Source: Agathobacter rectalis ATCC 33656
GTDB taxonomy: Bacteria > Bacillota > Clostridia > Lachnospirales > Lachnospiraceae
Length of the DNA stretch: 64,000 nucleotides
NCBI RefSeq assembly: GCF_000020605.1
Contig: NC_012781.1
Span: 434,001 to 498,000, forward strand
Direction of reading: 5' to 3'
The translations under genes and the position numbers were made by a program. Of the stretch, positions 33,949 through 62,192 are shown in pieces (position 1 is the first letter of the stretch; each line of letters begins with the position of its first letter). The notes beneath the pieces were generated by a model. It saw only the letters and a list, made by a program, of their open reading frames with translations, searched no databases and was not told where the DNA came from.

Positions 33949-34088
33949 CATTCTCCTAATAAAATTACAAAATCGCATTTTTTATTTTGATGTTTTACTA
34001 CAAAATCGCATTTTTTATTTCGACGATTTACCACAAAATCGCATTTTCTTTTTTGCTATTTTACCACAAAATCGCATTTTTTAAAAGA
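33949..34088 (-). repeat. Four 33-base tandem repeats upstream of the AAA ATPase
   Basis: In gene orientation the unit begins AAAATGCGATTTTGT and continues GTAAAA plus an AT-rich spacer. The shared CAAAATCGCATTTT starts at 33968, 34001, 34034 and 34067 on the + strand, exactly 33 bases apart. The core of 14 bases is identical in all four; spacers drift. The copy closest to the gene merges with the ribosome-binding site. Confidence 0.85.
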
Positions 34089-34292
34089 GGTTTGAATCTG
34101 CAGATTACACTTTTTATATAAAATCGTTACTGTTCACACCGAACAGTGTGACCAGCAACATAAAATACGTATAATAGAGGAAGAAAATACGCAAGATAAT
34201 ACGTAAGAAAATATGCAAGATAAAGTCGGTTCATAAGCTGCACCAAGCTGGTGCAGAAATCAGAAATATGTGAAAATATGACATAAATATAA
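34089..34292. other. Intergenic stretch without recognisable gene
   Basis: AT-rich, between the tandem repeats and the terminator-like hairpin at 34293. Contains short inverted pieces (CACACCGAACAGTGTG near 34137; AAGCTGCACCAAGCTGGTGCAG near 34237), but nothing I can assign. Confidence 0.3.
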
Positions 34293-36135: not shown

Positions 36136-36576
36136 ATGAAATTTAACTTTGAGTTTGCAGAGAAGATTTCGCGAACCTACAGCGATGAGTGCAGACCACT
36201 GTGCCATGAGCTGAAGCTTCCGCAGACAGCCTTTGATATACTCATGTTTCTGGCGAACAATCCGGAATATAAGACGGCAAGGGATATAGTTGAAATAAGA
36301 AAAATCAAGGCAAATCTTGTGTCTGTAAATGTTGATAAGCTTGTGAATGAAGGCTATCTGGAGAGAAAACCTGTGGAAAATGATAGGAGGAAGACGGAGC
36401 TTGTCTGTACAAAAAAGGCCGGGACTGTCATTGAAAGAGGAAGGCGTATACAGCAGCAGTTTACAGCAAATCTGTTTGCAGGGATAGATGAGGAGCAGAA
36501 AAAGCAGCTGACGATTGTTATGGAACAGCTTGAGAATAATATGGATGAAATAATCAGGAGGAAATCACACAAATGA
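36136..36576 (+). CDS. MarR-family transcriptional regulator
   Basis: 146 residues with a central winged helix: TAFDILMFLANNPEYKTARDIVEIRKIKANLVSVNVDKLVNEGYLERKPVENDRRKTELVCT, including the wing motif ENDRRK. Forms dimers and commonly represses its own operon. Overlaps the TSUP transporter gene by 4 bases (ATGA), so it probably controls that export function. GAAGGAAT precedes the ATG. Confidence 0.9.
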   Translation: MKFNFEFAEKISRTYSDECRPLCHELKLPQTAFDILMFLANNPEYKTARDIVEIRKIKANLVSVNVDKLVNEGYLERKPVENDRRKTELVCTKKAGTVIERGRRIQQQFTANLFAGIDEEQKKQLTIVMEQLENNMDEIIRRKSHK

Positions 36577-37349
36577 GCACATTAATAACTATAATAGTAA
36601 CATTTTTTGCCGGTATGGGCGCAGGCCTTGGAACCGGCTTTGCGGGACTAAGCGCAGCAGCAGTAATAAGCCCTATGCTCATTACATTTTTGGGAATGGA
36701 CCCTTATATGGCAGTGGGAATAGCCCTGTCGTCTGATGTACTTGCCAGCGCAGTGTCAGCCTATACATATGGAAAGAACAAGAACCTTGATGTAAAAAAC
36801 GGGCTCATAATGATGGTCACGGTTTTATGCTTCACGGTTGTTGGAAGCTATGTATCAAGCCTTGTGCCGTCAGCAACAATGGGCAACTTTTCGGTATTTA
36901 TGACATTTTTACTCGGAATCAAGTTTATAGTCCGTCCTGTCATGACAACAAAGGAGGCCATGCAGGGAGTTTCAGCTAAAAAGAGAGCTGTCCAGTCAAT
37001 CATCTGCGGTGTGATTATCGGATTTATCTGTGGCTTCATAGGTGCGGGAGGCGGTATGATGATGCTCCTCATCCTCACATCGGTGCTTGGCTATGAGCTT
37101 AAGACTGCAGTCGGAACGAGCGTATTTATCATGGCATTTACAGCCTTTACAGGAGCTGCCTCGCACTTTGCCATCGGTGGAAAACCGGACTGGTTTGTGC
37201 TGCTTTTATGTATTGCATTTACACTCCTTTGGGCGAGAATTGCAGCGGTCTTTGCAAACAAGGCATCCGCAAAAACCTTAAATCGTGCCACAGGTATTGT
37301 ACTTGTAATACTTGGCATCGTGGTATTTGCATTTTCACTTCTGAGCTGA
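36573..37349 (+). CDS. TSUP (TauE/SafE) family membrane transporter
   Basis: 258 residues, about 7-8 hydrophobic segments in two related halves. The half-repeat motifs GMGAGLGTGFAGLSAA and CGFIGAGGGMMML are the hallmark of the TSUP family, which exports or imports sulfur-containing organic anions such as sulfite, sulfoacetate or taurine-derived compounds. Actual substrate unknown. Translationally coupled to the MarR regulator. Confidence 0.88.
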   Translation: MSTLITIIVTFFAGMGAGLGTGFAGLSAAAVISPMLITFLGMDPYMAVGIALSSDVLASAVSAYTYGKNKNLDVKNGLIMMVTVLCFTVVGSYVSSLVPSATMGNFSVFMTFLLGIKFIVRPVMTTKEAMQGVSAKKRAVQSIICGVIIGFICGFIGAGGGMMMLLILTSVLGYELKTAVGTSVFIMAFTAFTGAASHFAIGGKPDWFVLLLCIAFTLLWARIAAVFANKASAKTLNRATGIVLVILGIVVFAFSLLS

Positions 37350-37371
37350 TTTTTCCTGAATATATAACTGC

Positions 37372-37631
37372 AAGCCCCGGCTGCCCGACCGGCACACACA
37401 GCTTCCCCGCGTGCGAATAGCGAAGCTGCTTAGATACTGTAGAAATTATGCCATGAAACACAGAAACGCTCCTGCATGGACGCAGGGGCGAGGAGAACCG
37501 CGCCACGGACGGCGCGTTTCGACGGTTTCGTCAGGCATAGAAGCTCTTCAAGCATAATTTCGTACAGTATCTTAGCAGCGCAGCGTAGCACGCGGGGGAA
37601 GCTGTGTGTGCCGGTCGGGCAGCCGGGACTT
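37372..37631 (+). repeat. Family A palindromic element, copy 1 (candidate structured RNA)
   Basis: Outer arms 37372-37413 and 37589-37631 are complementary over about 42 bases with one mismatch and one bulge. Inside, GCTGCTTAGATACTGTA pairs with TACAGTATCTTAGCAGC, then GAAATTATGC with GCATAATTTC. The centre holds two hairpins whose loops read ATGGAC (stem GCTCCTGC/GCAGGGGC) and ACGGAC (stem CGCGCC/GGCGCG). The core is shared with copies 2 and 3; the arms are not. Lies between the TSUP gene and a chemoreceptor gene, no ORF of note. Confidence 0.7.
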
Positions 37632-37895
37632 ACATCATTACATAAAACAAGAAAAAATCATCATATGTATTTTAAGGGGATTGCGAAAAAAATCTACCAT
37701 TTTGTGCAAAACCACATATTTAATAGAAAGATTCACATAAAGATTATTGAGAATATAGTATTGCTCCCTTAGAAAAATAGTACTATACTGAATTTGTCTG
37801 ATGAATTTAGACTTGAGTATAAATGCCCTTGAGTATAAATAATAATATAATTAAATGGTCAAAAGGTATCATAAGATAGGAGGAAATAACAAACT
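37632..37895 (+). promoter_or_regulatory. Leader of the chemoreceptor gene
   Basis: AT-rich. CTTGAGTATAAAT occurs twice, at 37812 and 37828 (16 bases apart), about 55-85 bases before the ATG; this may be a binding site or a small duplication. I see no convincing sigma-28 motility promoter. AGGAGG lies 10 bases before the start codon. Confidence 0.35.
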
Positions 37896-39608
37896 ATGTC
37901 TTCAAAAAAAGATGCGATGAAAAAGAAATTGGAAAACATGCATTTGGGTGAAAGGATTAACTATGGCTATAGAATGGTTATTACCATGATGCTTATTTCG
38001 GGACTGCTTTCGATTGCGGTCATTGGTGTGTTGTTTTTCAATATGTTAAACTATGTAAACAAGGTAAATGCTGCCGATCAGGCGGTTAAGACATGTAGAA
38101 TAAATGTAAATGCAGCGGCTAGAAATGTAAGAGAGATGGCACTTAATCCTGACAAATCAACATATGACGACTATGAGCAGGGCGCAAAAGAAAAGCTTGA
38201 AGATGTTGATGTGCAGTTAAAAACAATAAAAAAATCAGGTATCGTTCCTGAGAATCAGTATAATGAATATTCAAAGGCTCTTTCTGACTGGGCGAATATC
38301 GGATACTCAATCATGGATAAGATTAAAGCCGGACAGAAGGATGAGGCTGTTGATCAGATTATCAATGAGTGTACACCAAAGTTAAATAAAACAGTTGAGC
38401 TTGCAAAGGAAATCAACAAGCTGACTGACGAAAGAAGCCATCAGGCAGTTGTAAGGACATATGTATGTGCTGCAGTCGGACTCATAGTCATCATTATCTG
38501 TCTGATATGTGCATGGCAGTTGACAAAGAGAACAGGAAAGATCGTGCTTGATACAATCCTTGAGCCATTACATGCAATCGAGGAAGTGGCAAAGGAGCTG
38601 ACAGAAGGAAATCTTCACAGCACACTTGATTACCGTTCAGAGGATGAAATCGGTAGATTGGCACACAGCATGAGAAAGTCTATCCGTATTCTCGGCTCAT
38701 ATGTGGATGATATAGACAGGTCGATGAAGCTCTTTGCGGACGGACATTTTGATGCACAGCCGGAAGTAGAGTGGAGAGGCGATTTTGTAGGTATTTTACA
38801 TTCATTTATGGAATTTGAAAAAAGTATGGCAGTCACCATAAAGGGAATCCAGAATGTATCAAGCGAGGTTTCAAGTGCGGCAGAGCAGGTAGCTGCAAGC
38901 TCAAATGACCTTGCAGACGGTGCAACCAATCAGGCTGCGGTTGTAGAGGAACTGACAGCGACGGTTGAGGGAGTTTCAGAGCAGGTGGAGCAGAATTCAA
39001 AGAGTGCAAAGGAAATCAGTGGAAGAGTGGATGAGCTTGGAGGTGCAATTTGGGAAAGCAATGGAAAGATGCAGGAGATGGTTACATCTATGCATGAAAT
39101 AAACGAAGCCTCTAAACAGATAGATCAGATTATATCAACCATTAATGAGATTGCATCACAGACCAACCTGCTTGCATTAAACGCTTCTATTGAGGCAGCA
39201 AGAGCAGGGGAGGCAGGAAAAGGCTTTGCGGTTGTGGCAAATCAGGTAAATATGCTTGCCGATCAAAGTGCACAGGCTGCAAAGGAATCAGCTGCGCTTA
39301 TAGAGACATCTGTGCAGGCTGTTGAAAAAGGCATGAATATTGCAGAGCAGACAGCTTCACAGCTTGAAGAAGTAGCAGAGAACTCTAAGGTGATTACAAA
39401 AGAGGTGACTAATATAGCTGATACACTGGAGACCCAGACCAGTGAGATCAAGCAGATTAACGAAGGAATTGAGCAGATCAATGATGTTGTACAGACCAAT
39501 TCAGCAACATCACAGGAGTGTGCGGCTGCGAGCCAGCAGATGAGCAGTGAATCAGAAAATCTGAGTGAAATGATAGCAAAATTCAAAATCTCAGACATTG
39601 AAGAGTAA
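37896..39608 (+). CDS. Methyl-accepting chemotaxis protein
   Basis: 570 residues. TM1 at about 27-50, a four-helix-bundle-type extracellular sensor of about 140 residues, TM2 at about 190-212 ([20 protein letters not shown]), HAMP ([21 protein letters not shown]), and a signalling domain whose tip is the conserved [33 protein letters not shown], shown here for its key residues. It controls CheA. No CheB/CheR docking pentapeptide at the C-terminus. Followed 21 bases later by an EAL-domain gene, so chemotaxis and c-di-GMP signalling seem to be transcribed together. Confidence 0.95.
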
Positions 39609-39629
39609 TATAATAGAAGGTGAAATTTA

Positions 39630-41306
39630 ATGAGGGCTTTTGATGCATATAAAATACTTGACGAGCAGGAGGCAGGAAGTCTGATAGACTTAATTGCACC
39701 TTGTATGGATGATTATCTGTATATTATAGATTTAAAGAATGATACACTGAGGATATCACAGTCAGCGGTAGAGCGTTTTATGCTTCCTGATAAATTTATG
39801 AATGATGCAACAAAGCATCTTCGTACATTGGTTTATGAGAAAGACCGTAAGCTGCTCGAAAATCACAAGCGTAAAATATATGATGGAAAAGAAAAAAGGT
39901 ACAACGTGCTATGTCGTTTGATGAACAGCAAAAATCTCCCGGTATGGATTAACTGCCGTGGGGAGGTCATCAATGACGAGGCGGGGAAACCACGATATAT
40001 TATAGGCTGCATGAACGAGACAGGAACAAGGCAGCGAGCTGACAATATCAGTGGGCTGTTAGGTGAAAAGGAGATGGCATCATATCTCTATTCACAGCCT
40101 AAAGAGAAGCTGTCAGGTTATTTCATACAGATTGGAATTGACGATTTTGGGATAATCAATAATGTTCAGGGTCAGATATATGGCAACTACATACTTAAAA
40201 GAGTGGCCGAATGCATAGCAGAATGTCTCTCAAGCGGTCAGAGAATATATCATCTTGTTACAGATAAGTATATGCTTGTGGATATGCTTAGCAAATCGCA
40301 GGATGATGTGGTGCAGTTGTTCAAAAGGATAGGTGAAAAAATTGATGAGTTTATAGTTGATGAAAACTATAAATCAATCTTTTCGATTTCTGCCGGAGTG
40401 ACAGATATATCAACACTGGCAGAGGACGCAATAGAGTGCAGGAAAAAGTCGGATTTTTCTTTAAAATGCGCAAAAAAAAGAGGCGGAGGAAGCCTTTATT
40501 TCTTCGAGGAAGAGGATTATAAAGTGTCATTGCGCAAAAATACCATCCTGAGTGCGCTTCGTAGCGCAACTGTAAATGATTTTGAAGGCTTTGAGGTATA
40601 TTATCAGCCTATCTTAGATAGTGCTGATCGAATAATCGGTGCAGAGGCACTTTTACGGTTTTTCATGCATTCGGATGAGGGCGATGAAATGATTTCCCCG
40701 GTTGAGTTTATTCCTTTACTGGAGAAGAGCAGGCTCATCATTCCGGTTGGAGAGTTTGTATTGAACGAAGCAGCAAAAATGTGCCGTGAAATGCAGCAGT
40801 ATATTGCGGATTTCAGGGTAAATATCAATGTATCATATATACAGATTATGCGTGGAAGTATGGCAAATAAAATCCTTACTGCTATCCGGGCAAACAATCT
40901 GAGACCTGAATCCATCTGTATCGAAATGACAGAGAGTGGATTCATGGATATGACGCCATGTTTTTGCAGCTTCAGGAAAAAGCTTGATGAGAATAATATC
41001 CAGTTCATAATAGATGATTTTGGAACAGGCTATTCAAATCTTCGCTATATCAGTGAGATGAACCCGGACTATGTAAAGATAGATAAGGATTTTACGGCAA
41101 GGGCGATGAGCAGTGAGAAGGACTATGAGCTGTTCAGAAAGATTATAGAGATGGTTCACAGTATAAATATAAAAATCTGCATTGAGGGAATTGAGAAGGA
41201 AGAGTGGGCTTGCGCAATGAAAGAAATCCATGTAGATTATATGCAGGGATATCTGTATGGCAGACCATGCGAAAAAGGCGTTTTTTTAAACAACTATGGG
41301 ATATAA
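39630..41306 (+). CDS. c-di-GMP phosphodiesterase: PAS, degenerate GGDEF, EAL
   Basis: 558 residues, cytoplasmic. PAS-like domain at about 20-130, a degenerate GGDEF domain at about 145-290 in which the catalytic GGDEF is replaced by VTDKYM, then EAL at about 310-550. Phosphodiesterase residues are present: EALLR, the Asn of VNINVS, ICIEMTE, DDFGTG, VKIDK, IEGIE and MQGYLYGRP, so it should hydrolyse c-di-GMP while the GGDEF part is regulatory. AGGTGAAA precedes the ATG. Probably cotranscribed with the chemoreceptor. Confidence 0.9.
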   Translation: MRAFDAYKILDEQEAGSLIDLIAPCMDDYLYIIDLKNDTLRISQSAVERFMLPDKFMNDATKHLRTLVYEKDRKLLENHKRKIYDGKEKRYNVLCRLMNSKNLPVWINCRGEVINDEAGKPRYIIGCMNETGTRQRADNISGLLGEKEMASYLYSQPKEKLSGYFIQIGIDDFGIINNVQGQIYGNYILKRVAECIAECLSSGQRIYHLVTDKYMLVDMLSKSQDDVVQLFKRIGEKIDEFIVDENYKSIFSISAGVTDISTLAEDAIECRKKSDFSLKCAKKRGGGSLYFFEEEDYKVSLRKNTILSALRSATVNDFEGFEVYYQPILDSADRIIGAEALLRFFMHSDEGDEMISPVEFIPLLEKSRLIIPVGEFVLNEAAKMCREMQQYIADFRVNINVSYIQIMRGSMANKILTAIRANNLRPESICIEMTESGFMDMTPCFCSFRKKLDENNIQFIIDDFGTGYSNLRYISEMNPDYVKIDKDFTARAMSSEKDYELFRKIIEMVHSINIKICIEGIEKEEWACAMKEIHVDYMQGYLYGRPCEKGVFLNNYGI

Positions 41307-41420
41307 GGAATATTTTCCGGGAGTTACAGACAAAAAGAATGCCAATGAAATATTTGAAAGAATATTTAAACGTACAGAAAAACTAAACATCAAGGTATTG
41401 GGCAACAGGAGGCAAATCAC

Positions 41421-42101
41421 ATGCAAAATTCCAAAGAAAAAACTCTTTCCCAAAGGATTGCAGAGAGAATTATCAAATACATACTGGAGGAAAATCTGCA
41501 GCCGGGTGACAAGCTTCCGAACGAAACCGTAATGTGTGAACGGCTGAATGTTGGAAGAAGCTCTCTGCGTGAAGCTATGCGAGCACTCGCATCACGTAAT
41601 GTGATCACCATACGCCAAGGCTCCGGTTCATATGTTTCCGCCACTCCCGGGATGATTGATGATCCATTCGGCCTGACCTTTGTTGAAGATAAACAAAAGA
41701 TGATTAAAGATCTGATGGAAATCAGATTTCTAATCGAACCATCCATAGCTGCCATGGCCGCTATCCGTGCAGATGAGACAGATATCAAAAACATACTTAC
41801 TGCATGTGAAAATACCGAAAAGCTCCTTCTTGCAAATAAAAATCACGCTGAAAAGGATATAGCATTTCATACTGCTATTGCCTTAAGCAGCAAAAATATA
41901 GTTGTTCCAAAGCTGGTTCCTATCATCAACAGTTCAATTCCTCTGATCCGTGAGTCTGCAAAATTCACCATGCGTGATGAAACCATCGAAATTCATCGTG
42001 AAATTGCAGATGCAATTGCAGCCCACGATGCCGTCCGTGCCCACGATGCGATGTATCTGCATCTGATCTACAACCGGAAGCATATAAAATCCATAAATTA
42101 A
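41421..42101 (+). CDS. GntR-family regulator, FadR/FCD subgroup
   Basis: 226 residues. Winged helix at about 8-75 (QPGDKLPNETVMCERLNVGRSSLREAMRALASRNVITIRQGSGSYV), then a helical FCD domain at about 95-220 with the metal/ligand residues expected (DIAFHTAIA; EIHREIADAI; DAMYLHL). The family responds to organic acids, often uronates or lactate, but no target operon lies beside it. Codon choice is visibly richer in TCC, ATC and CCG than in flanking genes, suggesting later arrival. AGGAGG lies 8 bases before the ATG. Confidence 0.9.
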   Translation: MQNSKEKTLSQRIAERIIKYILEENLQPGDKLPNETVMCERLNVGRSSLREAMRALASRNVITIRQGSGSYVSATPGMIDDPFGLTFVEDKQKMIKDLMEIRFLIEPSIAAMAAIRADETDIKNILTACENTEKLLLANKNHAEKDIAFHTAIALSSKNIVVPKLVPIINSSIPLIRESAKFTMRDETIEIHREIADAIAAHDAVRAHDAMYLHLIYNRKHIKSIN

Positions 42102-42296
42102 TGACTGTCCGGTTATCACCGGCCACACTGCGATGTGACCGGCAGTACCATATTTTATGGTTCTGGCGCTTGAAATAGTCGCCCAGCAACCTGTTTACAT
42201 TATACATCATAAGTCATTTTGGTTGGAATGTCAAAGTATTGCTAATGATAAAACAAAAAGTTGATATATTACTACATAAGAAAGAAGGATGAAATT
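42102..42296 (+). other. Intergenic region after the GntR gene
   Basis: CCGGCCACA and TGTGACCGG (around 42118-42143) can form an imperfect hairpin but no T-run follows, so its terminator role is doubtful. An AT-rich stretch before the hemerythrin gene contains its promoter; I cannot define hexamers with confidence. Confidence 0.3.
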
Positions 42297-42698
42297 ATGT
42301 ATGAAATGAAACCAGAATATTATATCGGAATAGATATGATTGATGAAGAGCACAAGCAGTTATTTAAATATGCAGATGAAGCATATGAACTGCTGCATGA
42401 TGAGTTTACACCGGATAAATATGATAAGATGGATATCATCTTGGAGAAGCTCCGCGACTACACAGTAAAGCACTTTGCTGACGAGGAGCAGTACATGGAA
42501 TCAATACATTACAAGAAGATGTTTACACAGAAGGTTCAGCATATGGAATTTGTACAAAAGCTGGATGAGTTCATTGAGCATCATAGTGATGAGGAGATAG
42601 ATCAGGATGAGCAGATCATGGGAATCCTCAAGTATCTCACAGACTGGCTGATAAACCATATCCTGTATGTTGACTGTCAGATACCGAAGCCACAATAA
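42297..42698 (+). CDS. Bacteriohemerythrin
   Basis: 133 residues from the ATG at 42297 (AAGGATGA upstream). Diiron-binding residues are visible: IDEEHKQLF, KHFADEEQYM, the His of VQHMEFVQ and LINHILYVD. The four-helix protein binds O2 and may sense it, deliver it or buffer against it in this anaerobe. It is placed between c-di-GMP genes, and in many clostridia hemerythrins accompany motility genes. Confidence 0.92.
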   Translation: MYEMKPEYYIGIDMIDEEHKQLFKYADEAYELLHDEFTPDKYDKMDIILEKLRDYTVKHFADEEQYMESIHYKKMFTQKVQHMEFVQKLDEFIEHHSDEEIDQDEQIMGILKYLTDWLINHILYVDCQIPKPQ

Positions 42699-42726
42699 AG
42701 TACCTGAGTTTTAGCAAAGAGTAAGT

Positions 42727-42994
42727 ACCGCAGGTCGCCGTCTGCCGTGGTAGCGCACATACTCCCCGTAAGCGAATAGCGAAGCGGCTTAGATACTGTA
42801 GAAATTATGCCGTGAAACACAGAAATGCCCAGCCATGGACGGCTGGGCAAGGCGTTATGCGCCATGGACGGCGCATAAAAGCCGGTTTCGTCAAGCATAG
42901 AAAGACTGTAAGCATAATTTCGTACAGAATCTTAGCCGCGCAGCGTAGCTTACGGGGAGTATGTGCGCTGCCACGGCAGGCGGTGGCATGCGGT
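42727..42994 (+). repeat. Family A palindromic element, copy 2 (candidate structured RNA)
   Basis: Outer arms 42727-42770 and 42951-42994 match over 44 positions with 39 Watson-Crick pairs, four + strand G.U wobbles and one mismatch. They share no sequence with the arms of copies 1 or 3. Inner stems: GCGGCTTAGATACTGTA with TACAGAATCTTAGCCGC, then GAAATTATGC with GCATAATTTC. Two central hairpins both have ATGGAC loops (stems GCCCAGCC/GGCTGGGC and TTATGCGCC/GGCGCATAA). Sits between hemerythrin and diguanylate cyclase genes. Confidence 0.7.
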
Positions 42995-43050
42995 CCGTAA
43001 TTTTATAGAAAAATATAGCGTAATCAGCATATATTTGGTATAATTTGGAT

Positions 43051-44481
43051 ATGAAAAATAAGCGAAGATTTGCAATGGTCTCAGTTTCAGTAATCGTAGT
43101 AGCATTGATTCTCGAGGCGGGAATTTTGAAATATGTAAATGATGCAAATGCATATAAGCTATCAAAGGTGCTTCTGGATCGTGTTTTCACTGTGCTCGAT
43201 AAAAATGACCAGAGTGAGGAGGAGCTTATAGAATCGTTAAAGGACGATTATATAGTCAGGGCAAAAGCAGTGTCATATATCGTAGATGCAAAGCCACAGG
43301 TAGAAAATGATGTGGAGGAATTGCAAAAGATAGCAAAGCTGATGTCGGTAGATGAGATACATCTGTTTGATGAAACAGGTTGTATAACCAGCGGCAGCGT
43401 GCCAAAATACTTTGGCTACAGCTTTGATTCGGGGACTCAGATGTCATATTTTAAACCAATGCTCACCGATAAGAGCCTTACGATGTGTCAGGATGTCACA
43501 CCGAATACATCAGAGGGAAAGGCAATGATGTATGCCATTACCTGGAATGAGGCTGGCACAATGATGGTACAGGTGGGTTTGAAGCCGCAAAGGCTCTTAG
43601 ATGAATTGAAGCAGAATGAAATATCTACAGTGGTTTCTGACATGCCTGTGTACAAGGGCATGGAACTTTATGTGGCAGATGCAGATACAGAACTGGTTAA
43701 GGGGGCCACAGATTGTGACAAAATAGGAAAAACCTTCCACGATTTAGGCCTTCCAACAGATATTAAGGAAAGCGATAAGCCAACAGTAAGGCAGATTAGC
43801 GTAAATGATTCAGGCTGCAGATGTGTAATCAGGAGAGGTGACAAATATATAGTGGCTGTCACCATTGACAAATCCTTTTATATGACGAACAGCGTAGTAG
43901 CACTGCTTGTAGTTGGCATATATCTTATACTCGCATCGTGCTGTATTATGTATATGTTTTCGAAGATTATGAAGGAAAAATATGAGAAAGAAAAGCTGTT
44001 GTATATATCGAATACTGATGCACTTACAGGGTGCCTGAACAGACATGCCTATGAGACAGATATCAATAAGCTTGATTTGAAAAAAGAGTGGATATATATA
44101 TCACTTGATTTAAACAGCTTAAAGCATGTAAACGATACATATGGACATGCTGCGGGTGATGAGATGATTTGCGCAGCCGCAACATGCATGATGGCAAGCT
44201 TTGGTGAGTTTGGCAGGGTGTACAGAATAGGCGGAGATGAGTTTGCTGTGATAATTACACAAAAGCCGGATGAGCTTGATGCTATGACAAAGCATTTCGA
44301 CAGCAGTGTAGCCGAATGGAGAGGAAAAATCGTCGATTCCATGACCATCTCATACGGATGTGTAAGAAGTCTGGAGGAAGACTGGGAGTTTGTATACGAT
44401 ATTGCGAAGGAAGCAGACAGGAGAATGTATGCAAGCAAGGCGCGCTATTACAGTGACAGTGACATAGACAGGAGAAAGTAA
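43051..44481 (+). CDS. Membrane diguanylate cyclase (GGDEF)
   Basis: 476 residues from the ATG at 43051. TM1 (about 8-28), an extracellular sensor of about 240 residues, TM2 (VVALLVVGIYLILASCCIMYMF), then GGDEF with substrate motifs LDLNSLKHVNDTYGHAAGDE and active site RIGGDEFAVI. No RxxD inhibitory site is visible five residues upstream of GGDEF. It makes c-di-GMP, opposing the EAL protein upstream. No Shine-Dalgarno sequence precedes the start; instead a TATAAT ends 7 bases before it, so the mRNA may be leaderless. Confidence 0.92.
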   Translation: MKNKRRFAMVSVSVIVVALILEAGILKYVNDANAYKLSKVLLDRVFTVLDKNDQSEEELIESLKDDYIVRAKAVSYIVDAKPQVENDVEELQKIAKLMSVDEIHLFDETGCITSGSVPKYFGYSFDSGTQMSYFKPMLTDKSLTMCQDVTPNTSEGKAMMYAITWNEAGTMMVQVGLKPQRLLDELKQNEISTVVSDMPVYKGMELYVADADTELVKGATDCDKIGKTFHDLGLPTDIKESDKPTVRQISVNDSGCRCVIRRGDKYIVAVTIDKSFYMTNSVVALLVVGIYLILASCCIMYMFSKIMKEKYEKEKLLYISNTDALTGCLNRHAYETDINKLDLKKEWIYISLDLNSLKHVNDTYGHAAGDEMICAAATCMMASFGEFGRVYRIGGDEFAVIITQKPDELDAMTKHFDSSVAEWRGKIVDSMTISYGCVRSLEEDWEFVYDIAKEADRRMYASKARYYSDSDIDRRK

Positions 44482-44489
44482 ATTAAAAT

Positions 44490-44531
44490 AAAGATTCCAC
44501 CAATACGGATATGGTATTGATGGAATCTTTT
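44490..44531. terminator. Terminator between GGDEF and azlD genes
   Basis: AAAGATTCCA...AATAC pairs with GTATT...TGGAATCTTT around a short loop; T-tract on one strand and A-tract on the other suit both convergent genes. Confidence 0.75.
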
Positions 44532-50048: not shown

Positions 50049-50113
50049 ATTCGCGCCTACGAGAATTTATTTCGCGAATTAATCATTACTTTTGTATATT
50101 ATTATGATAAACA

Positions 50114-50364
50114 GCTCGCCGGAGGGGCGCATTGACGCAGCATACGGCTGTGGCGCATGCTCGATTTACGACGTGTCGTGTGTGAGAGTTAATGCCACCT
50201 GCGGCTGAAGCTGGCGCAAAAAATACTCGTTCAAGCGTAAGCGCGTTTGATTTTTTAGCGCCTAATAAGCTCTGCCGCAGGAGGTATTTACTCTCACCAG
50301 ACTAAGGAGTTATGAGAGCATGTGTCACAGTTGTATGCTGTGGCAATGTGCCCCTCCGGCGAGC
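50114..50364 (+). ncRNA. Element B: 251-nt nested palindrome, candidate structured RNA
   Basis: Arms 50114-50162 and 50316-50364 pair over 49 positions: 42 Watson-Crick, 6 G.U wobbles (all valid only if the + strand is transcribed) and one mismatch. Inside, GTGAGAGT/ACTCTCAC and CCTGCGGC/GCCGCAGG stack around an internal loop, then GGCGC/GCGCC and TCAAGCG/CGCGTTTGA close a central hairpin, with a small ACGA/TCGT hairpin on the 5' side. No coding potential. It fills the gap between proS and cca and ends 32 bases before the cca start. Confidence 0.55.
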
Positions 50365-50395
50365 GTCATTTAGAATAAAAAAGGAGAATCCAACG

Positions 50396-61790: not shown

Positions 61791-61818
61791 ATATCTATAT
61801 TATAGCTATAAAGTAAGG

Positions 61819-62099
61819 GGATTGTGTGCCCGGGACGGTGCTTTGGTGGGGGATTGATGCCCTTACTGGAGCGCATAGAGAAGTTGCTTAGAGTCTGTCA
61901 GAATTATGCTTAGAGGAGCAGAAATGCCCGGCCATGGACGGCTGGGCAAGGCGTTATGCGCCATGGACGGCGCATAAAAGCCGGTTTCGTCTGTCATAGA
62001 AAGATTAAAAGCATAATTCCTACAGACTCTTAGCAGCGTAGCGTAGCGAAAGCGAGGGCATCAATCCCCCACCAAAGTATCGTCCCAGGCGCGCAATCC
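61819..62099 (+). repeat. Family A palindromic element, copy 3 (candidate structured RNA)
   Basis: Outer arms 61819-61867 and 62051-62099 pair over 49 positions with five + strand G.U wobbles and two mismatches; sequence unrelated to the arms of copies 1 and 2. Inner stem TTGCTTAGAGTCTGT pairs with ACAGACTCTTAGCAG, differing from the ATAC/GTAT of copies 1-2 in a compensating way. Central hairpins with ATGGAC loops are almost identical to copy 2. It lies after the ftsH terminator, so it is not simply an ftsH 3' tail, and before tRNA-Tyr. Confidence 0.7.
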
Positions 62100-62192
62100 A
62101 CGTATTAAAGAAAATAATTTGGTTACGATAAAATATGCTTGCATAATCACATCTGTTGTGATAAACTATGCAAGTATCGTAATTAAATACAT

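What the first reader, a model, noticed from the sequence alone, without database searches (positions are those of the whole stretch)
37372..37631. Family A: large structured element with covarying stems (copy 1)
Three intergenic copies (37372, 42727, 61819), all on the + strand after + strand genes, share the same fold. A long outer stem (42-49 bp) whose sequence is completely different in each copy is nonetheless self-complementary. The mid stem covaries: GCTGC/GCAGC, GCGGC/GCCGC; ATAC/GTAT versus AGTC/GACT. Two central hairpins covary too: CTGC/GCAG versus AGCC/GGCT around the same ATGGAC loop. That is base-pair selection, hence a functional RNA of about 270 nt. I do not recognise it as a named class.
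Basis: partly seen in the sequence, partly recalled or inferred. Interest (0 to 1): 0.85.

Follow-up and report, generated by a model that had tools for sequence, protein, structure and literature searches.

The report
Known gut RNA that flips orientation
The element is a repeated copy of a catalogued bacterial RNA family (TwoAYGGAY) that may bind the regulator CsrA; the new part is that its centre appears turned around in place at several sites between two closely related bacteria.

Summary
All three window copies match Rfam RF01731 (TwoAYGGAY) at 147-158 bits, cut-off 43. The host genome has 49 copies. Covariation is strong: 40 of 60 pairs change on both sides in 26 aligned copies, 0 of 500 shuffles as high. 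The outer stems have drifted but are alignable.

Best-supported function is the published proposal (PMC4333381, passage seen) that the two hairpins bind CsrA. New support: the loops keep A-N-GGA, with GGA at both loops in 28/30 own and 18/18 distant copies aligned. CsrA is encoded by 49/51 motif-bearing genomes against 236/347 without the motif; a control RNA, raiA, shows no such link.

Unexpected: against a close sister genome (a draft MAG), the core is inverted in place at 6 of the 23 loci tabulated with clearly orthologous cores: 92-99% identical when turned, 59-65% as placed. Of 13 sites compared where one genome lacks the full element, 11 keep remnants, so loss is seen but clean insertion is not. 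Expression and CsrA binding are untested here.

The parts
37366..37637 (+). Copy 1, whole element (core plus outer arms)
   Evidence: Arms; core; starts just after ORF 36573-37349 (+)
37418..37586 (+). Copy 1 core, RF01731
   Evidence: cmscan 151.5 bits, model 1-168
37369..37408 (+). Copy 1 left arm
   Evidence: Inverted repeat I4, 95% complementary to 37595-37634
37595..37634 (+). Copy 1 right arm
37476..37481 (+). Copy 1 hairpin loop 1, ATGGAC (candidate CsrA site)
37505..37510 (+). Copy 1 hairpin loop 2, ACGGAC (candidate CsrA site)
   Evidence: GGA-to-GGA spacing 29
42717..43004 (+). Copy 2, whole element
   Evidence: Inverted repeat I1
42777..42946 (+). Copy 2 core, RF01731
   Evidence: 158.0 bits
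42835..42840 (+). Copy 2 loop 1, ATGGAC
42864..42869 (+). Copy 2 loop 2, ATGGAC
61814..62104 (+). Copy 3, whole element
   Evidence: Inverted repeat I2
61876..62044 (+). Copy 3 core, RF01731
   Evidence: 146.8 bits
61934..61939 (+). Copy 3 loop 1, ATGGAC
61963..61968 (+). Copy 3 loop 2, ATGGAC

Best explanation
The three elements are copies of TwoAYGGAY (RF01731), a dispersed structured RNA. Shown here: the core is a long stem with two hairpins whose loops keep A-N-GGA, 28-30 nt apart in 36 of the 37 elements where both were detected; the genome carries 49 matches, and the elements sit inside outer arms that drift quickly yet stay largely self-complementary. Inferred: when an element is transcribed as part of a neighbouring transcript or from its own promoter, the two GGA hairpins bind a CsrA dimer, so the copies together act as decoys that hold CsrA away from lower-affinity mRNAs, and the outer stem insulates and protects the fold. 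Also inferred: core inversion is a by-product of recombination or replication errors between the inverted arms, and copy number is a balance between old duplications and frequent deletion.
For: Rfam matches and 49 copies. Loop conservation: in 30 of the own-genome cores loop 1 is A30, N (T24/A3/C3), G29 (one gap), G30, A30, then variable; GGA stands at both loops in 28 of 30 own and 18 of 18 distant cores aligned. GGA spacing is 29-30 in 26 of 27 own elements (one automatic call gave 14) and 28-30 in the 10 of 18 distant elements where both loops were detected automatically. CsrA (PF02599) is present in 49 of 51 genomes with a motif match at E<=0.001 against 236 of 347 without (odds ratio 11.5, Fisher p=4e-6); counting only the 34 genomes with a match over the family cut-off, 33 of 34 against 252 of 364 (p=2e-4). 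The control RNA raiA (RF03072) shows 30 of 46 against 255 of 352, p=0.30. The host encodes two CsrA-family proteins. Strong covariation. The core changes less than the arms between sisters: 20 of 23 orthologous cores are 95% identical or more, while arm pairs change often. Gardner and Eldai proposed CsrA binding for this family from motif matches (PMC4333381, one passage seen).
Against: No RNA-seq and no binding data were available. Within the genus csrA is nearly universal (56/60; 30/30 high-quality) while the motif is patchy (24/60), so CsrA does not require it. Two motif-bearing genomes lack a detected csrA: G241 (94% complete, 6 motif hits) and G295 (75% complete, one hit at E=0.001). The 398 genomes are not phylogenetically independent (the 51 motif genomes fall in 25 families), so the p-values are too small; only one control RNA was run. 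17 of the 51 have no match over the family cut-off. Some copies are lost or broken in one sister, so single copies look dispensable. Orientation relative to genes is not conserved, and inversion puts the sites on the other strand.
Confidence: 0.5

Rival explanations
1. A MITE- or REP-like DNA repeat. The element spreads as a ~280-bp unit with defined ends, and the palindrome is needed for mobility; the RNA core matters only to the element itself, if at all.
For: 49 dispersed copies; patchy presence within one genus, 0 to 38 matches per genome in a search that scored at most 38 candidates; recurring end motifs lying outside the core; local clusters (L010/L048/L049 and L022/L041/L042).
Against: No clean insertion: of 13 site comparisons 11 keep remnants of arm or core and 2 (L091, L092) are ambiguous. 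All 11 exact own-genome hits of the left-end motif lie at TwoAYGGAY elements or remnants, so no autonomous relative with exactly these ends was found. Fixed A-N-GGA loops on one strand and the csrA link are not expected of a purely DNA element.
Confidence: 0.25
2. A 3'-end or intercistronic mRNA element: the very stable outer stem stops exonucleases or separates transcription units, and the core is a protein-binding module in those transcripts.
For: Long paired arms; intergenic position; convergent contexts outnumber divergent ones, own genome ++13, +-12, --7, -+5 (ORF-based).
Against: No orientation rule (25/37 and 18/33 behind a co-directional gene); cores invert; a simple hairpin would not need two conserved GGA loops.
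Confidence: 0.17
3. A cis-regulatory switch of the neighbouring genes (Rfam types it Cis-reg).
For: Rfam type label only.
Against: Neighbours of the window copies look unrelated by eye, contexts are in all orientations, and Weinberg et al. 2010 list it as probably not cis-regulatory and probably not a riboswitch (PMC2864571, table passage).
Confidence: 0.05

Closest known systems
Rfam RF01731 TwoAYGGAY (Weinberg et al. 2010, PMC2864571; clan CL00106)
   Same: Full-length model matches over the gathering score for all three copies; two AYGGAY hairpins; same stem architecture.
   Different: Nothing found in the core. The Rfam model stops inside the element: here paired arms of about 40-57 nt and recurring end motifs extend it. 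CaCoFold had already lengthened an annotated helix of this family (PMC7657543, one passage).
CsrB/CsrC/RsmZ CsrA-sequestering sRNAs (features recalled)
   Same: GGA in hairpin loops, several sites per cell, host encodes CsrA.
   Different: Two sites per element spread over ~49 chromosomal loci instead of many sites in one or two sRNA genes; a dedicated promoter or two-component regulator was not looked for.
Invertons / phase-variable inverted-repeat segments (features recalled)
   Same: A segment of ~190 bp between inverted repeats is found in both orientations at the same locus.
   Different: Repeats differ from locus to locus, so no single recombinase site is evident; both states were seen only by comparing two species, not within one population.
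REP/BIME and MITE repeats (features recalled)
   Same: High-copy intergenic palindromic repeats.
   Different: Much larger, with a conserved multi-hairpin core; no clean empty site and no partner element with exactly these ends found here.

Membership tests
RF01731 TwoAYGGAY | Score at or above the curated gathering score (43 bits) | tested here: met
   151.5, 158.0, 146.8 bits
RF01731 TwoAYGGAY | Two hairpins with AYGGAY loops | tested here: met
   All three window copies
RF01731 TwoAYGGAY | Conserved secondary structure with covariation | tested here: met
   26 own-genome elements
CsrA-sequestering RNA | A-N-GGA in hairpin loops, more than one site | tested here: met
CsrA-sequestering RNA | Occurs in genomes with CsrA | tested here: met
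   49 of 51 genomes; exceptions G241, G295; 33 of 34 over the cut-off
CsrA-sequestering RNA | Binds CsrA and relieves its targets | not testable with these tools
   No binding or expression data
CsrA-sequestering RNA | Expressed as an abundant free RNA | not testable with these tools
   No RNA-seq held
MITE / IS-derived repeat | Clean empty sites, target duplication | tested here: inconclusive
   11 of 13 compared sites keep remnants, 2 ambiguous; target duplications not tested systematically
MITE / IS-derived repeat | Autonomous element sharing the ends | tested here: inconclusive
   Left-end motif exact in own genome: 11 of 11 hits at this family; one motif form, one genome, right end not searched
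Inverton | Segment flanked by inverted repeats found in both orientations | tested here: met
   6 of 23 orthologous cores; between species only, and the sister is a draft MAG
Inverton | Common recombinase site and recombinase | tested here: inconclusive
   Arms differ between loci; recombinase genes were not searched

The most novel reading that the evidence does not exclude
TwoAYGGAY elements are invertible CsrA-site cassettes. Each locus carries a ~190-bp RNA core between private inverted repeats, and flipping the core takes the two GGA hairpins out of, or puts them into, the transcripts that cross the locus. A population could thus vary, locus by locus, how much CsrA it sequesters or which transcripts carry CsrA sites, with the arms kept complementary by the same recombination.
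Probability: 0.1. Interest if true: 0.85.

Novelty: already known. Interest (0 to 1): 0.45.

Why it matters
The RNA class is in Rfam without a function that I could find in the passages seen. The loop conservation and csrA co-occurrence make the CsrA proposal directly testable in one gut bacterium with 49 copies. In-place inversion of a structured-RNA core inside locus-specific palindromes did not turn up in the paper searches (open-licence PMC papers only). It also warns that matched changes in long palindromic stems are not by themselves proof of RNA selection.

Tried and rejected
Unknown class: rejected by the Rfam match.

Inverted cores inside the own genome: my first arm table seemed to show swapped arms. 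That was my error (genome-search loci are not oriented to the match) and vanished on re-orientation.

L013 (window copy 3) as ortholog of G014 C16_32650: counted as a flip (7 of 25), then dropped, because flanks on both sides of that G014 copy match G000 214742-215092. L038 was dropped from the clear-core count (66% as placed, 55% inverted); it supplies 7 of the compensated arm changes.

Recent clean insertion: not found. Autonomous partner by left-end motif: not found. Assembly artefact for the inversions: the longest perfect arm match in the six flipped G014 loci is 23, 22, 13, 21, 22 and 51 nt (the 51 is the ortholog of L036), so five are too short to confuse assembly at usual k-mers (inference); L036 could be affected, which would leave 5 of 22. 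A second genome pair to test inversion (G050 against G054, 12 and 15 loci): too diverged; among matches over 280 nt one reached clearly beyond an element (L158/L166, 490 nt at 68%). Pattern scan of viral contigs: 0 matches.

Full report
WHAT IS THERE. Three intergenic elements at 37366-37637, 42717-43004 and 61814-62104 (+) consist of a ~168-nt core inside inverted arms of 40, 57 and 50 nt (95, 84 and 86% complementary). cmscan identifies all three cores as RF01731 TwoAYGGAY over the whole model (151.5, 158.0, 146.8 bits; E 1e-29 to 4e-27). The genome G000 (3,449,685 bp, one contig; window = 434001-498000) has 49 matches, all over the cut-off. Four of these are split by a group II intron and two carry a longer first hairpin. 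From its size I recall the genome as Eubacterium (Agathobacter) rectale ATCC 33656; no call names it.

STRUCTURE. On 26 of the 49 own-genome elements, arms included, 60 pairs were counted: 95.1% of cells paired, 40 pairs with changes on both sides, covariation 0.429 against 0.154 shuffled, no shuffle of 500 as high; sliding the partner by 1-3 columns gives 28-48% paired. The structure came from the same alignment, and four loci with deviating arms (L018, L022, L028, L029) and L031-L049 were not put in. All 18 outer-arm pairs of that structure have changes on both sides (89.5% of cells paired). The arms are alignable homologs that have drifted. Left and right ends share motifs YCACARCGTAAGG and AATAGTACGG (rc), found with up to 3 mismatches in 44 and 41 of 76 elements (43 of the 49 G000 elements, the six interrupted or altered ones left out, and all 33 of G014); at that laxity some are chance. 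All 11 exact own-genome hits of the left motif are, by position, at this family or a remnant of it.

IS THE ARM PAIRING RNA OR DNA SELECTION? If RNA pairing is selected, G.U mismatches should exceed A.C on the core strand. G000: 75 against 41 (p=0.002); G014: 43 against 29 (p=0.12). Per element 22:8 with 13 ties (p=0.016) and 16:12 with 5 ties (p=0.57). A first count with looser arm limits gave 129:101 over both genomes. This favours RNA selection modestly and leaves room for arm-to-arm repair of DNA. Between sisters, one search found 24 pairs with a compensated change on both sides, 88 Watson-Crick to mismatch and 37 mismatch to Watson-Crick, in 25 loci. Without L013 (not an ortholog) these are 23, 71 and 34; without L038 as well, 16, 64 and 32. 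Independent changes at that rate would give about two compensated pairs (my rough estimate, no call).

INVERSION. Orthologous loci were found from flanks. For 24 of them the cores were compared in both orientations. One (L038) has no clear core match. Of the other 23, 17 cores match as placed (86.5-100%) and 6 match only when inverted: L003 98.8, L006 99.4, L020 98.8, L023 97.0, L036 92.4, L039 97.0%, against 59-65% as placed. In these six the fixed flank windows are 81-99% identical; in 9 of the 24, none of them flipped, at least one fixed window fell below 80%. Flanks and outer arms stay in place in the four flipped loci aligned in full. Two further shared loci with an intron in G000 (L043, L047) keep orientation. 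A seventh case, L015, has a turned and truncated core in G014 (by eye). Where the end motifs can be read, they suggest G000 holds the older state (weak). Five of six flipped loci have perfect arm runs of 23 nt or less, the sixth (L036) 51, so assembly error is unlikely for five but not excluded.

LOSS, NOT INSERTION. Seven G014 copies without a G000 partner and 13 of the G000 copies without a G014 partner were searched by joined flanks. Thirteen sites were aligned; by eye 11 keep pieces of an element: partial deletions; a plain hairpin with the core gone (L037/L099); a turned and truncated core (L015/L101); a fusion of two elements' arms (L103). Two (L091, L092) are ambiguous. The other searched loci gave no interpretable pair of flanks. 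Window copies 1 and 2 lie in a ~7.1-kb stretch (37358-44527) absent from G014, so they give no element-specific empty site.

DISTRIBUTION AND CsrA. Within the genus 24 of 60 sampled genomes (G000 included) have the motif, in very uneven numbers. In the phylum sample 51 of 398 genomes (41 of 267 genera) have a match at E<=0.001 and 34 one over the family cut-off, with at most 6 candidates scored per genome. Of 20 distant loci fetched, 19 reach the cut-off; in these the same core with two hairpins is visible by eye, with a GA-rich motif at the core's foot in most. On 48 aligned cores (30 own; 18 distant, L125 and L126 left out) the loop A and GGA are mostly kept and the bases beside them vary; GGA stands at both loops in 28 of 30 own and 18 of 18 distant cores. 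A stricter hairpin search finds both loops in 27 of 30 and 10 of 18; GGA spacing is 28-30 nt in 36 of these 37. CsrA is found in 285 of 398 genomes: 49 of 51 with the motif, 236 of 347 without (odds ratio 11.5, p=4e-6); over the cut-off 33 of 34 against 252 of 364 (p=2e-4). raiA RNA as control: 30 of 46 against 255 of 352 (p=0.30). Relatedness among genomes is not corrected for. In the genus csrA is nearly universal and uninformative (56 of 60).

LITERATURE. 'TwoAYGGAY' is in 7 papers of the library, 5 listed; I saw passages of these five, not whole texts. Weinberg 2010: table passage, probably RNA, probably not cis-regulatory, probably not a riboswitch. Gardner and Eldai 2014: passage proposing CsrA-binding sRNAs. 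Rfam 15: two additional covarying pairs. CaCoFold: an annotated helix lengthened. Stability-compensation preprint: unequal hairpin stabilities. Searches for CsrA sponges with Clostridia, invertons with E. rectale, CsrA/FliW/sRNA, PhaseFinder with Agathobacter (0 papers) and inversion/MITE (0 papers) showed nothing on inversion of this element in their listings.

VERDICT. A known RNA class, confirmed as RNA-like. A published CsrA hypothesis is strengthened by loop conservation and by co-occurrence but not proven. In-place inversion inside locus-specific palindromes is new to me and rests on one genome pair, one member of which is a draft.

Noticed in passing
G000 L051, L052, L054, L055 (elements L043, L044, L046, L047): Four copies are split at the same core site by an antisense group II intron (RF02001, RF01998 and RF00029 in all four; in L051 a 464-aa ORF that looks like a reverse transcriptase by eye). 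The G014 orthologs of two of them (L060, L075) lack it. The intron seems to use this repeat as a target.
   Followed up: partly
window 50108-50370: Another large palindromic element: arms 50114-50162/50316-50364 (49 nt, 86%), 153-nt centre, no Rfam match in the window scans; one further copy at G000:C1:2727961-2728206 (70% identity).
   Followed up: partly
window 37358-44527: About 7.1 kb including copies 1 and 2 is absent at the orthologous place in the sister genome, which has ~70 bp instead.
   Followed up: no
L135-L141; also G000 2296099/2296552 and 613736/614033: Elements often stand in divergent pairs (minus left, plus right) some 130-560 bp apart in several genomes; seen by eye in the capped list, not tested against chance. 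Several pairs have an AT-rich middle.
   Followed up: partly
G000 2039595-2042685 (L048, L010, L049): Three elements within about 3 kb; in two of them the first AYGGAY hairpin is replaced by a longer insert.
   Followed up: no
G000:C1:3209104-3209238: A second, divergent CsrA-family gene (58 bits) besides the main one at 108708-108866 (92 bits); both score classes recur in the genus.
   Followed up: no
window 33967-34116: Short tandem array of 33-bp units containing ACAAAATCGCATTTTTTA.
   Followed up: no
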